A stretch of DNA of 64,000 nt from Cryptosporangium aurantiacum. GTDB taxonomy: Bacteria; Actinomycetota; Actinomycetes; Mycobacteriales; Cryptosporangiaceae. This document shows, one piece after another, positions 50,225 to 56,485 of the stretch; within the stretch, counting starts at the first letter, position 1; the number at the start of each line of letters is the position of its first letter. The position numbers were made by a program, and so were the translations under genes. Location: positions 558,001-622,000 of the forward strand of contig NZ_FRCS01000004.1 of assembly GCF_900143005.1 (NCBI RefSeq), written 5' to 3'. The notes beneath the pieces were generated by a model that saw only the letters and a list, made by a program, of their open reading frames with translations, did no database searches and was not told the DNA's origin.

Positions 50225-51392
50225 AGGCGACGGGCTGGGGCTCGCGGACGTGGATCGTGGGGACGACCGCGACGGCCAGTGCCGCTGCGCACGCGGCCGA
50301 AGCGAACGCCACCGGGTAGCCCGCGTGCGTCACGACCGCACCGAGCACCGGCGCGGTCAGCGCGGCGACCGCGTTCTGCCCGGTGTTGTGGATGCCCAAC
50401 GCACGCCCGGCCCACCCCGGCCCGGCGTATTCGGCCACCGCGGTGAACGAGAGCCCGTTCGTCGACACCGACACGACGGCGGCCGCGACCAGCGCGGTCA
50501 CCGCCACGCCCGGCACGCCGGCGGCTCCGGCCGCGAGCAGCGCGACGACGACGCCGGTGGTGCCGGCGAGCACTCGCATCGGCCCGGTGCGGCTGCCGGC
50601 TCGGTCGGACCACCAGCCGGCCATCAGACGTGCCGCCGCCCCGCCGAACGCGGCGACCGCGAGCAGCCGACCGGCCTGCGCGGCGTCCCAGTGTTCGACG
50701 TCGACCAGGAACACCAAACCGAACGTCGCGACCGCGAACTGCGGGAAGACCAGCAGGGCGCCGGAGCCGTGCAGCCGCCAGAGCATCGGAGTGCGGTATG
50801 GGCTCCCGGCTTCGGACGCTCCGCCGGACTCGACCCGCGCCGGATCGCGCACGACGACCGCGATCAGCACCGCGGTCACCAGGCACGCCGCGGCCAGGAA
50901 CACGAGCGCGGGGGCGCGGCCGGATTCGCTGAGCACCGGCACCGCGACCGCGGCCACCGCGACGCCGAGCGGCTGCGCCATCTGGCGGATGCCCATGGCC
51001 AGCCCACGCTCGGCGGCGCCGAACCAGCCCAGGATCAGCCGCCCGCTGGCCGCGTTCACCGAGCCCGCGGCGGCACCGCCGACGACGAGGCAGGCCCCGA
51101 GCGCGATCGGGCCGGACACCGCGGCCGCGACCAGCAGCGCCACGCCCGCCCCGGCCAGCCCCAGCCCGATGACGCCGCGCTCGCCGTAGCGGTCGGCCAG
51201 TGCACCCCAGACCACCAGCGTCGCCAGTAGTCCAAGCGACGGGCACGCGACCAGGACGGCGGCCTCGGTGAGCGAGAGGCCGTCGGCGCGGAGACGCGGG
51301 AGGAGGTACGGCAGCCCGTAGAGGAACGCGCACCCGGCCGTCATCCCGGCCACGCCCGCCGCCAACACCACCCAACGCCGCCTTGATTCCAT
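50223..51392 (-). CDS. Major facilitator superfamily transporter
   Basis: A 389-residue protein with 12 predicted helices; the loop between helices 2 and 3 has VWGALADRYGERGVI, the MFS motif A variant. It resembles CynX/NimT or oxalate-formate-type permeases; the substrate is unknown. No ribosome site precedes ATG 51392, but TAATCT ends 6 nt upstream, so the mRNA is probably leaderless. An AT-rich palindrome covers this promoter. Confidence 0.85.
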   Translation of the reverse strand: MESRRRWVVLAAGVAGMTAGCAFLYGLPYLLPRLRADGLSLTEAAVLVACPSLGLLATLVVWGALADRYGERGVIGLGLAGAGVALLVAAAVSGPIALGACLVVGGAAAGSVNAASGRLILGWFGAAERGLAMGIRQMAQPLGVAVAAVAVPVLSESGRAPALVFLAAACLVTAVLIAVVVRDPARVESGGASEAGSPYRTPMLWRLHGSGALLVFPQFAVATFGLVFLVDVEHWDAAQAGRLLAVAAFGGAAARLMAGWWSDRAGSRTGPMRVLAGTTGVVVALLAAGAAGVPGVAVTALVAAAVVSVSTNGLSFTAVAEYAGPGWAGRALGIHNTGQNAVAALTAPVLGAVVTHAGYPVAFASAACAAALAVAVVPTIHVREPQPVA

Positions 51393-51418
51393 ATTTCGAG
51401 ATTAGCGTCTCGATATAT
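51391..51418 (-). promoter_or_regulatory. AT-rich operator palindrome over the MFS promoter
   Basis: Arms ATATTTCGAGA (51391-51401) and TCTCGATATAT (51408-51418), one mismatch, spacer TTAGCG. It covers the -10 box TAATCT (51404-51399 on the minus strand) and the start codon. An AT-rich site with TCGA arms suggests a PadR-, ArsR- or GntR-class repressor. Confidence 0.65.
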
Positions 51419-51450
51419 GAGATCTGAAGCAGGGGTGGCAGGCTGTTCCC

Positions 51451-53147
<1,697 letters not shown>

Positions 53148-53150
53148 CTA

Positions 53151-53172
53151 GCGGGGGCCCGCAGGCCCCCGC
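53151..53172 (-). terminator. Intercistronic hairpin between cysO and cysM
   Basis: A perfect 9-bp stem (53151-53159 with 53164-53172), loop CGCA, in the 61-bp gap. It could attenuate or process the message and set a CysO:CysM ratio. Confidence 0.5.
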
Positions 53173-53181
53173 CGGCCGTGC

Positions 53182-53460
53182 TCAGCAGCCGCCGGCCACC
53201 GCGGGCAGCACGGTCACCGAGTCGCCGTCCTTCAGGCCGGTGTCGAGGGCACCGGTGAACCGGACGTCCTCGTCGTTGACGTACACGTTCACGAAGCGGT
53301 GGAGCGTGCCGGTGTCGGTGACCAGCCGGCCACGCAGGCCGGGGTACTTGCCGTCGAGGTCGGCGATGAGCGCCTCGAGCGTCTCACCGTCGCCCTGCAC
53401 GGTCTTCTCGCCGCCGGTGTAGGTGCGCAGGATCGTCGGAATGCGGACTTCGATCGCCAT
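53182..53460 (-). CDS. cysO: CysO-type sulfur carrier protein ending Gly-Gly-Cys
   Basis: A 92-residue ubiquitin-fold protein, very similar to mycobacterial CysO (VRIPTILRTYTGGEKTV, HRFVNVYVNDEDVRF, DGDSVTVLPAVAGG). The known protein ends in Gly-Gly, the form that is adenylated and thiocarboxylated; here the codons are GGC GGC TGC TGA, giving a C-terminal cysteine. This mimics the CysO-cysteine adduct, and the encoded form probably has to be trimmed by Mec first. GGAGG lies 11 nt before ATG. It is preceded by a 166-bp gap that may hold a leader. Confidence 0.92.
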   Translation of the reverse strand: MAIEVRIPTILRTYTGGEKTVQGDGETLEALIADLDGKYPGLRGRLVTDTGTLHRFVNVYVNDEDVRFTGALDTGLKDGDSVTVLPAVAGGC

Positions 53461-53626
53461 AAGTACTTAAACCTCCTGGAAGTGACGAAAGAGCAGCCGG
53501 CGGGGGCAGGCTGATGCGGTGGATCCTCACGTGCCAGATCGTGCGGCACGGGTTGGACTCAGCGGCAACGACAGTCGTAGACCACCTCGGCCGGAGTATG
53601 GCCGAAGAGGTAGGACTGGGTGGGGG

Positions 53627-54043
53627 TCACGACGCGGACTCCATGATCTCCACCGGCTCTTCGGTCACCACACCGTCGACGATGCGGAACGAGCGGAACT
53701 CGACGGTGTCCGCGTCCCGGGTCGAGACCAGGACGTAGTGCGCACCCGGCTCCTGCGCGTAGGAGATGTCGGTGCGCGAGGGGTACGCCTCGGTCGCGGT
53801 GTGCGAGTGGTAGATGACGACGGGCTCTTCGTCCCGGTCGTCGAGCTCCCGGTAGAGCTTGAGCAGGTCCATCGAGTCGAACTCGTAGAACGTGGGCGAC
53901 CGGGCGGCGTTCAACATCGGGATGAACCGGTCAGGCCGGTCGCTACCGGCCGGACCCGCCACCACGCCACACGCCTCATCGGGGTGATCGCGGCGGGCGT
54001 GCGCCACGATGGCGTCATAGATAGCCCGGTCGAGAGTCAACAC
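53627..54043 (-). CDS. mec: CysO-cysteine peptidase Mec
   Basis: A 138-residue JAB/MPN+ metalloprotease: Glu in HPDEACGVVAG, zinc ligands in YHSHTATEAYPSRTDISYA (HxH, then S and D). It releases cysteine from CysO-Cys. GTG start; TACGCT ends 7 nt upstream, so it is likely leaderless, and the promoter of mec-cysO-cysM probably begins here. Confidence 0.93.
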   Translation of the reverse strand: MLTLDRAIYDAIVAHARRDHPDEACGVVAGPAGSDRPDRFIPMLNAARSPTFYEFDSMDLLKLYRELDDRDEEPVVIYHSHTATEAYPSRTDISYAQEPGAHYVLVSTRDADTVEFRSFRIVDGVVTEEPVEIMESAS

Positions 54044-54096
54044 GACGTCCAGCGTACCCAGCCCATCGCGCGGGATTCACCCAGACGGGACGCGCA

Positions 54097-54807
54097 TCAC
54101 TCCGGGTCTATCGCATCGACGAGGCTGGCCTGCAGGCCGGTCAGGAACTGGTACAGCGAGAGCCCGAGCACGCGGGCACCGGTCGGGTCGACGCCCGCAG
54201 CCGCCTCGAGCTCGGCGAGCGGGTCGGTGTCGGCCTCGATCTCCAGCGCGGTGCCGAGCATCAACCGGGCGTCGTTGAGCGCGAGCAGCCAGGCCTCGGC
54301 CCGATCGTCGTCCAGCCGGATCTCGCCACCCTCGAACGGGAGGTCGTCGAGGATCACGCCCGCGTTGCCGATCTTCTGCTCACGCAGCGACGACTCGGTG
54401 AGGCTGCGCAGCTCGGCCGCCGCCTCCGGGTCGTCCCGGTAGCCGTCCGGGAAGAGGCGAGCCAGGACCGGGTCGGCGCTCGGACCGGCGACCCCGACCG
54501 CGTCGACCCCGTCGTCCACCAGCTCGACCTCGAGGTCCTCCGGGTCGGGTTCGATCTTGTCGAAATCGTCGAAGACGTCGCCCGGCCGGGGTGAAGCCCC
54601 GAACGGCCCGGGCCCGAACGGGTCCGGGTCGGCAGCCGAGACCCGCCCCAGCGAGGACGGGCCGAGGTCGAGGCTCATGACGCCGCGTCGGTCGCCGGCC
54701 TGGATCAGCCCGGCGACCTGCGCGACCACCAGCCCGACCGCTTGCGCTTCCTCAGCGCTCAGCCGCAGCGTGTAGGCGTTGTTCGACCGTGTGAAGCCGT
54801 ATGTCAT
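54097..54807 (-). CDS. DUF2017 protein
   Basis: A 236-residue acidic cytosolic protein with MTYGFTRSNNAYTLRLSAEEAQAV at the N-terminus and a helical C-terminus (AWLLALNDARLMLGTALEIE). It is the homologue of Rv1332, always next to clpS in actinobacteria; a function in ClpS-linked proteolysis is often assumed but unproven. It starts 1 bp after clpS. Confidence 0.85.
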   Translation of the reverse strand: MTYGFTRSNNAYTLRLSAEEAQAVGLVVAQVAGLIQAGDRRGVMSLDLGPSSLGRVSAADPDPFGPGPFGASPRPGDVFDDFDKIEPDPEDLEVELVDDGVDAVGVAGPSADPVLARLFPDGYRDDPEAAAELRSLTESSLREQKIGNAGVILDDLPFEGGEIRLDDDRAEAWLLALNDARLMLGTALEIEADTDPLAELEAAAGVDPTGARVLGLSLYQFLTGLQASLVDAIDPE

Positions 54808-54808
54808 C

Positions 54809-55108
54809 TCAGTCCTGCTGCAGGGTGGCCCAGAGCCCGTGCGAGTGCAGCCTGGCGACGTCGTGCTCCATGCGTTCCCGGCTGCCGCTCGACACCACGG
54901 CTCGGCCCTTGTGATGCACGTCGAGCATCAGCTGGGTCGCCTTGGATTTGTCATATCCGAACAGCTTCTGGAACACGTAGGTCACGTACGACATCAGGTT
55001 GACCGGATCGTCCCAGACAACCGTGACCCACGGTCGTTGCTGCGCGGGCCTTTCTACGGTGCTCGGTGTCTCCGCCGGAGCGACCAGGGGAGCGGTCATG
55101 AACCCCAT
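54809..55108 (-). CDS. clpS: ClpS adaptor of the Clp protease
   Basis: A 99-residue protein with the ClpS core [43 protein letters not shown] and GLWATLQQD. It binds N-degron substrates and hands them to ClpC/ClpA. The start may be ATG 55108 or 55099. Divergent from pncB. Confidence 0.93.
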
Positions 55109-55195
55109 CGTGCCATCGCTGGAGGTTCTCGCAACAACCCCGGGCAACGCAGTTCTCGTCCGTGGGGTCGAGCCGGGGTACCGATCGGCGGCTCG

Positions 55196-55207
55196 TAGGC
55201 TGGAGTC
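55196..55207 (+). promoter_or_regulatory. -10 box and leaderless start of pncB
   Basis: TAGGCT (55196-55201) ends 6 nt before the ATG; no ribosome site. Confidence 0.5.
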
Positions 55208-56485
55208 ATGGGGACAGCACTGCTGACCGACCACTACGAGCTCACGATGCTGGCCTCCGCGTTGCGCGACGGCTCGGCCCAACGCGAGTGCGTGTTCGAG
55301 GTGTTCGCCCGCCGCCTGCCGAAGGAGCGACGCTTCGGCGTCGTCGCGGGCACCGGCCGCCTGCTGGACGCGCTGGCCGACTTCCGGTTCGACGCCGACG
55401 AGCTCGACTTCCTGCGCAGCGCCGGAGCGGTCGACGCCGACACCGCCGCCTGGCTGAAGGACTACCGGTTCAGCGGTGACATCGACGGTTATCCGGAGGG
55501 TGAGCTGTACTTTCCCGGATCGCCGATCCTCACGGTGCGGGGAACGTTCGGCGAGGCCGTGCTGCTGGAGACGCTCGCGCTCTCGATCCTCAACCACGAC
55601 TCGGCGATCGCCACCGCGGCCGCCCGGATGGTCATCGCCGCGAGCGACCGGCCGCTGATCGAGATGGGCTCCCGGCGCACCCACGAGGAAGCCGCGGTGG
55701 CTTCCGCGCGGGCCGCCTACCTGGCCGGTTTCACCGCGACGTCCAACCTCGAGGCGGGTCGGCGCTACGGCATCCCGACGACCGGCACCAGCGCACACGC
55801 GTTCACGCTGCTGCACGACACCGAGAAGGCCGCGTTCGCCGGCCAGCTCGCGGCGCTGGGCGTCGGCACCACGATGCTCGTCGACACGTACGACATCACG
55901 GCGGGGATCCGCACCGCGATCGAGGTGGCCGGGCCGTCGCTCGGTGCCGTCCGGATCGACTCCGGCGACCTCGGTGTGCTCGCCGTCCAGGCCCGCCACC
56001 AGCTGGACGCGCTCGGCGCGACCGCCACCCGGATCGTCGTCTCCGGCGACCTGGACGAGTACGCGATCGCCGCGCTGGCCGTCGCCCCGGTCGACGCCTA
56101 CGGCGCCGGAACCGCGGTGGTCACCGGCTCCGGCGCACCCACCGCGGGCATGGTCTACAAGCTGGTCGAGGTCGAAGGCCGGCCGGTGGCCAAGCGCAGC
56201 GAGAACAAGGCGTCCCGGGGCGGGCGGAAGACCGCGGTCCGGCGCTACAAGCCCACCGGCACCGCCGTCGACGAAGTGATCACCGCAGGGGCGGCCACCC
56301 CGGAACTCGGCGACCACGACCGGCTGCTGCAGATCCCGCTGGTCCGCAACGGGATCCGGGTACCCGAGGCCCCGACGCTGCTGCAGTCGCGGGACCACCT
56401 GGAAAAGGCCCTCGTGACGATCCCCTGGGAGGGTCTGAGCCTGTCGGCCGGAGAGCCGGCCATTTCTGTCGCTTTTGCTAGCTGA
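55208..56485 (+). CDS. pncB: Nicotinate phosphoribosyltransferase
   Basis: A 425-residue enzyme: [68 protein letters not shown] (catalytic His) and RIDSGDL. It converts nicotinate to its mononucleotide for NAD salvage. The following nicotinamidase gene (12 bp away) supplies nicotinate. Confidence 0.95.

What the first reader, a model, noticed from the sequence alone, without database searches (positions are those of the whole stretch)
53182..53460. CysO carrier protein encoded with an extra C-terminal cysteine (Gly-Gly-Cys)
The sequence shows codons GGC GGC TGC TGA at the end of cysO. In M. tuberculosis the functional CysO ends in Gly-Gly and cysteine is added only as the reaction product that Mec removes. 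Here the unmodified protein already looks like CysO-Cys, so Mec may act first as a maturase, as JAB-type QbsD does for the QbsE carrier in Pseudomonas. The gene product would be inactive until trimmed, a possible control on cysteine synthesis.
Basis: partly seen in the sequence, partly recalled or inferred. Interest (0 to 1): 0.7.

Follow-up and report, generated by a model that had tools for sequence, protein, structure and literature searches.

The report
Extra cysteine ending sulfur carrier CysO
A small sulfur-carrier protein used to make cysteine is encoded with one extra cysteine after its working end, one of many short tails seen on this protein in related bacteria, which a neighbouring protease most likely trims off; the idea is already known from other bacteria, so this is a fairly ordinary case.

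Summary
On the minus strand, window 53460-53182, cysO encodes 92 residues ending Leu-Pro-Ala-Val-Ala-Gly-Gly-Cys (GGC GGC TGC TGA). The gene order is clpS, DUF2017, mec, cysO, cysM. Two of the four genomes of the genus end in Gly-Gly-Cys and two in bare Gly-Gly, so it is not a sequencing slip.

It is not special. Of 214 distinct actinobacterial CysO sequences sampled, all keep LPAVAGG, 73 stop there and 141 carry a tail of 1-43 residues; 23 of these are a lone Cys. ThiS and MoaD from the same order have no tail in 30 of 30 and 30 of 30 loci. A Mec gene lies upstream of 211 of the 214, with the JAMM motif in 211 of 211.

The maturase idea is thus well supported by comparison, but it is in print: in Streptomyces platensis, carriers "capped" after Gly-Gly, one by a single C, are described, and a JAMM knock-out loses the thioacid products (PMC6006322, passages). 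A special control role for Cys is not supported: the state changes at least 10 times on the tree. A new member of a known kind.

The parts
53182..53460 (-). cysO, sulfur carrier protein, 92 aa, ends ...LPAVAGGC
   Evidence: ORF; PF02597 E 2e-18; 3dwg_C E 9.7e-32
53182..53187 (-). TGC TGA: the extra Cys codon and stop after Gly-Gly
53627..54043 (-). mec, JAB/JAMM metalloprotease, 138 aa, motif HSHTATEAYPSRTD
   Evidence: PF14464 E 2.2e-31; only Prok-JAB match in the genome; HxHx7SxxD in 211 of 211 rows
52170..53141 (-). cysM, cysteine synthase, ends ALEGQLWA like its best solved match
   Evidence: 3dki_A, Cysteine synthase B / O-phosphoserine sulfhydrylase, E 2.7e-154, aligned to the last residue
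54097..54807 (-). DUF2017 protein of the same gene cluster
   Evidence: PF09438 E 9.4e-44; operon type described in PMC1779556 (passages)
54809..55099 (-). clpS, first gene of the cluster
   Evidence: PF02617 E 7.3e-24
53559..53630 (-). small ORF between mec and cysO, MTPTQSYLFGHTPAEVVYDCRCR (GTG start), overlaps the mec stop by 4 bases; candidate cysteine leader peptide
   Evidence: not part of the claim given

Best explanation
The gene encodes an ordinary CysO made as a capped precursor. Shown: the protein ends Gly-Gly-Cys, in a cluster with Mec and CysM, and the genome holds one strong ThiF match, whose open frame continues into a rhodanese-like stretch (MoeZ type, by my reading). Inferred: the fresh protein has the same structure as the CysO-cysteine adduct of the pathway, so it enters the cycle at the Mec step; Mec clips off the Cys as it would a normal product, exposes Gly-Gly, and MoeZ can then load sulfur. 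Because Mec is nearly always at hand, the tail is under little constraint in most lineages, so tails appear, change and vanish often. The lone Cys may arise and be lost by duplication or deletion of one GCT triplet (GGC TGA to GGC TGC TGA).
For: CysO tails in 141 of 214 distinct sequences with LPAVAGG in 214 of 214; at least 38 changes between tailed and bare on a tree of 211. Control: ThiS bare in 30 of 30, MoaD bare in 30 of 30, and in the own genome only CysO of the four ThiS-family matches is tailed. Mec upstream of 211 of 214, catalytic motif in 211 of 211. The first tail residue is A, S, C, M, G or T in 136 of 141, the second in only 25 of 107, as a pocket built for Cys might allow. All 23 lone-Cys cases read GGC TGC TGA. 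Independent genetics: capped carriers and the JAMM knock-out in S. platensis (passages).
Against: No trimming was measured in this organism, and the S. platensis passages that I saw show the knock-out, not cap removal by the enzyme in vitro. Mec is so constant that there is no Mec-less tailed CysO to test: of the three without an adjacent hit, two have only 14 and 118 bases held upstream and the third, L302, has JAB matches elsewhere in its genome. The first-residue bias could come from mutation at the junction with the cysM start (ATGCGC repeats in L063) and is inflated by Micromonosporaceae. In Micromonosporaceae the first nine tail residues are conserved (pN/pS 0.133 against 0.376 for the last 60 core codons and 0.189 for the last 35), so some tails are not free. 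GGC is the commonest last Gly codon anyway (167 of 217), so the triplet-slip idea has little power.
Confidence: 0.8

Rival explanations
1. The encoded Cys is a selected switch: CysO is born inactive and Mec activity gates cysteine synthesis.
For: The product should be inactive until trimmed (inference from the chemistry); lone-Cys ends occur in three separate places of the tree and are the commonest single-residue tail, 23 of 34.
Against: Two of the four genomes of the genus lack it with mec and cysM in the same places; C against not-C changes at least 10 times on the tree; lone A and lone S tails change 3 times each in only 4 and 3 sequences, so Cys is not the only single residue gained often.
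Confidence: 0.07
2. Tails are trimmed by another peptidase, such as a general carboxypeptidase, with Mec acting only on CysO-Cys adducts.
For: Not excluded by sequence; no protease family other than Prok-JAB was searched for in the genome.
Against: ThiS and MoaD in the same order had no tails (60 of 60 loci), so a general trimmer does not seem to license tails; the S. platensis JAMM knock-out loses the products (passages).
Confidence: 0.1
3. The Cys is kept and has its own role, for example metal or disulfide binding, and this CysO is not a sulfur carrier.
For: None found.
Against: LPAVAGG is unchanged in 214 of 214 and mec is upstream in 211; bare relatives in the same genus.
Confidence: 0.03

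Closest known systems
PtmS1 / PtmS2 / PtmS3 of Streptomyces platensis (PMC6006322, passages seen)
   Same: Carriers capped after Gly-Gly, PtmS3 by a single Cys; JAMM gene clustered with a capped carrier; JAMM deletion abolishes the thioacid products
   Different: PtmS2, not PtmS3, is the one named as clustered with the JAMM gene; whether PtmS3 is a CysO was not stated in the passages seen; shown for thioacid antibiotics, not for cysteine
M. tuberculosis CysO-CysM-Mec pathway (PMC3227635, passages seen; chains 3dwg and 3dki, organism recalled)
   Same: CysO core aligns over residues 2-91; CysM aligns over nearly its full length (6-323 of 323) and both end ALEGQLWA; operon type with ClpS listed for Mtub in PMC1779556 (passages)
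   Different: That CysO ends at Gly-Gly; here Cys follows
QbsD/QbsE of Pseudomonas (QbsD named in PMC6006322, passages; QbsE details recalled)
   Same: JAB protease exposing Gly-Gly of a capped carrier
   Different: Siderophore pathway; sequences not compared here

Membership tests
CysO sulfur carrier (CysM/Mec pathway) | ThiS family and closest to CysO by sequence | tested here: met
   PF02597 E 2e-18; 3dwg_C best hit (its identity as CysO recalled)
CysO sulfur carrier (CysM/Mec pathway) | Encoded with mec and cysM | tested here: met
CysO sulfur carrier (CysM/Mec pathway) | E1-like MoeZ with rhodanese domain in the genome | tested here: inconclusive
   one strong ThiF match, 275 bits; its frame continues into a rhodanese-like stretch, judged by eye; no rhodanese or MoeZ model was run
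CysO sulfur carrier (CysM/Mec pathway) | Thiocarboxylate on the last Gly, made and used for cysteine | not testable with these tools
   needs mass spectrometry
Capped sulfur carrier matured by a JAMM protease | Extra residue(s) after Gly-Gly | tested here: met
   Cys after Gly-Gly
Capped sulfur carrier matured by a JAMM protease | Linked JAMM gene with intact catalytic motif | tested here: met
   mec upstream, HSHx7SxxD
Capped sulfur carrier matured by a JAMM protease | Protease removes the cap | not testable with these tools

The most novel reading that the evidence does not exclude
In actinobacteria the CysO gene is free to encode almost any tail because the cycle's own protease cleans it, and with Gly-Gly-Cys the ribosome makes a reaction intermediate directly. 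In Micromonosporaceae the tail (A-F/L-G-F-A-A-A-A-A) has become conserved, perhaps as a degron or gate that makes untrimmed CysO short-lived, in an operon type that also holds clpS.
Probability: 0.2. Interest if true: 0.5.

Novelty: new member of a known kind. Interest (0 to 1): 0.3.

Why it matters
It suggests that bare Gly-Gly, as in M. tuberculosis, is the minority state of CysO (73 of 214 sampled), and that a second job for Mec as maturase is the likely rule in actinobacteria rather than a curiosity. Anyone expressing such a CysO for sulfur transfer should remove the tail or add Mec; in the S. platensis work the caps were removed by cloning (passages). The contrast with untailed ThiS and MoaD gives a simple sequence sign of which carriers have a trimming protease.

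Tried and rejected
Sequencing error or chance: rejected, a second genome of the genus and other families have the same end. Special selection for Cys: lone C changes 10 times in 23 sequences, lone A 3 in 4, lone S 3 in 3, lone M 1 in 4; the sample leans towards relatives of the query, so the excess of C cannot be read as selection. Mec columns that tell tailed from bare CysO: the best mutual information was 0.146 bits, without correction for relatedness, so nothing usable. Tail present only where Mec is present: not testable, Mec is nearly constant. Rfam over 51000-56000: no match at gathering threshold. NCBIfam for the small-ORF peptides: no match. Structure prediction was not run; it would not settle trimming. 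Literature: searches, of which I saw listings, and passages of four papers; the 2014 Nature paper on 2-thiosugars, which I recall as relevant, is not held. A survey of CysO tails over actinobacteria did not appear in these listings, which cover open-licence papers alone.

Full report
What is there. The gene runs on the minus strand from 53460 to 53182 and encodes 92 residues ending LPAVAGGC, codons GGC GGC TGC TGA. It is a ThiS-family protein whose best match among solved chains is 3dwg_C, recalled as M. tuberculosis CysO. Upstream on the same strand lie mec, a DUF2017 gene and clpS; downstream lies cysM. This is the actinobacterial operon type listed by Iyer and colleagues in 2006 as ThiS/MoaD, JAB, cysteine synthase and ClpS with a helical protein (PMC1779556, passages). 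The same paper suggests that JAB proteins could free the end of ThiS or MoaD where these are fused to other proteins. The genome (9.58 Mb, unnamed) has four ThiS-family matches; the other three end in bare Gly-Gly. It has one Prok-JAB match, Mec, and one ThiF match over the cut-off, whose frame looks like MoeZ with a rhodanese part by eye; three weaker ThiF matches lie below the cut-off.

Is it real and how old. Of the four genomes of the genus, two end in Gly-Gly-Cys (G000, G002) and two in Gly-Gly (G001, G003), all four with mec upstream and cysM downstream; the one sister genome of the family ends in Gly-Gly-Ser. So the state is young and labile.

How common. From 234 loci, 217 distinct entries remained; three are a different paralogue ending LPSVAGG (L091-L093) and were dropped, leaving 214. 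The sample leans towards relatives of the query. All 214 keep LPAVAGG. 73 stop there. 141 go on: 34 by one residue (C 23, M 4, A 4, S 3), 46 by two (AR 14, SR 9, MR 5 and others), 61 by four to 43 (the bare count is 76 with the paralogues). Some long tails are repeats of the end itself, such as VAGG copies in L259 and L292. On a FastTree tree of the 211 rows with Mec, bare against tailed needs at least 38 changes, and lone Cys against the rest 10; branch support was not assessed and direction cannot be told. Lone Cys occurs in the window's genus (2), Geodermatophilaceae (12) with f16 (5), and Nocardioidaceae (2) with f41 (2); f16 and f41 are unnamed family codes whose rows lie among these families in the tree order.

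The control. If tails were tolerated on any such carrier they should be seen on ThiS and MoaD too. They were not: 30 of 30 ThiS loci (the 30 returned of 69 matching genomes among 101) and 30 of 30 MoaD loci (the 30 returned of 76 matching among 81) end exactly at Gly-Gly. The difference that fits is Mec, which lies upstream of CysO in 211 of 214 and has HxHx7SxxD in 211 of 211. Of the three without an adjacent hit, L073 and L112 have only 14 and 118 bases held upstream, so nothing can be said, and L302 has none in the 1200 bases held but its genome has two JAB matches elsewhere, the nearer about 5 kb away.

How it most likely works. In the M. tuberculosis pathway CysM makes a CysO-cysteine adduct and Mec hydrolyses it to cysteine and CysO (PMC3227635, passages). 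That the adduct rearranges to an ordinary amide, and so equals Gly-Gly-Cys, is from my own knowledge. A ribosome-made Gly-Gly-Cys then needs no new enzyme: Mec treats it as its usual substrate. The first tail residue is small or Met in nearly all cases (A 66, S 32, C 23, M 12, R 3, G 2, D 2, T 1 of 141), unlike the second (25 of 107 in the set A, S, C, M, G, T), which fits a Mec pocket made for Cys, although family bias and copying of the cysM start could also give this. All 23 lone-Cys cases are GGC TGC TGA, one GCT triplet more than GGC TGA, so a slip is a simple origin; GGC is common at that codon anyway (167 of 217), so this is only suggestive.

What is already known. Dong and colleagues (PMC6006322, passages) describe S. 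platensis carriers capped after Gly-Gly by MV (PtmS2) or by a single C (PtmS3), a JAMM gene ptmS1 clustered with ptmS2, loss of both thioacid products on deleting ptmS1, and no loss on deleting ptmS2. For in vitro work they removed the caps by cloning; the passages show no cap removal by the enzyme itself. They name QbsD as the precedent. I found no support for a control role.

Side results. All 29 named Micromonosporaceae rows have a tail of one type, and with two more rows (L124, L146) its first nine codons give pN/pS 0.133, against 0.376 for the last 60 core codons or 0.189 for the last 35, so that tail seems kept by selection; the counts are pooled over non-independent pairs. Between mec and cysO a small ORF overlaps the mec stop by four bases and ends in Cys codons (MTPTQSYLFGHTPAEVVYDCRCR). 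A related ORF was found in 15 of the 158 loci with a gap of 60 or more: 4 of 4 of the genus, L025, and 10 of 10 Actinoplanes or Paractinoplanes, but in none of the other 18 Micromonosporaceae loci. Small ORFs of any kind with two or more Cys among their last seven residues were seen in 14 of 185 loci, several of them unrelated to this one, against 6 of 925 shuffles. Cysteine leader peptides without clear terminators upstream of actinobacterial cys operons were described in 2005 (PMC1262725, passages). This is a more natural candidate for cysteine control than the CysO tail, but it is untested.

Noticed in passing
window 53559-53630, minus strand; L025, L043, L048, L054-L056, L061, L064, L068, L069, L078, L086-L089: Small ORF between mec and cysO, overlapping the mec stop by 4 bases in the window, ending in Cys codons (QSYLFGHTPAEVVYDCRCR type); found in the window's genus (4 of 4) and in Actinoplanes/Paractinoplanes (10 of 10); candidate cysteine-responsive leader peptide, no NCBIfam match.
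   Followed up: partly
29 named Micromonosporaceae loci, e.g. L030, L032-L034, L036, L037, L039; end of cysO: Long CysO tail starting mostly A-F/L-G-F-A-A-A-A-A, conserved at the amino acid level over its first nine residues (pN/pS 0.133), with a variable far end.
   Followed up: partly
L052, L063, L070, L274, L278, L290 and L040, upstream of cysO: A different small ORF, LLVARLHVDLCRLASAIC type, between mec and cysO in 6 of 6 Streptomycetaceae and f33 loci with a gap of 60 or more, and a likeness in one Frankia locus, L040; resembles Streptomyces putative leader peptides (recalled).
   Followed up: no
L019, L123, L156, L162, L255, L259, L292: CysO tails that repeat the end of the protein, with one or more extra AGG, VAGG or LPAVAGG copies, as from tandem duplication.
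   Followed up: no
window 53153-53170: G+C-rich inverted repeat (GGGGGCC, loop of 4, GGCCCCC) between the cysO stop and cysM, seen by eye, with a similar one in L089.
   Followed up: no
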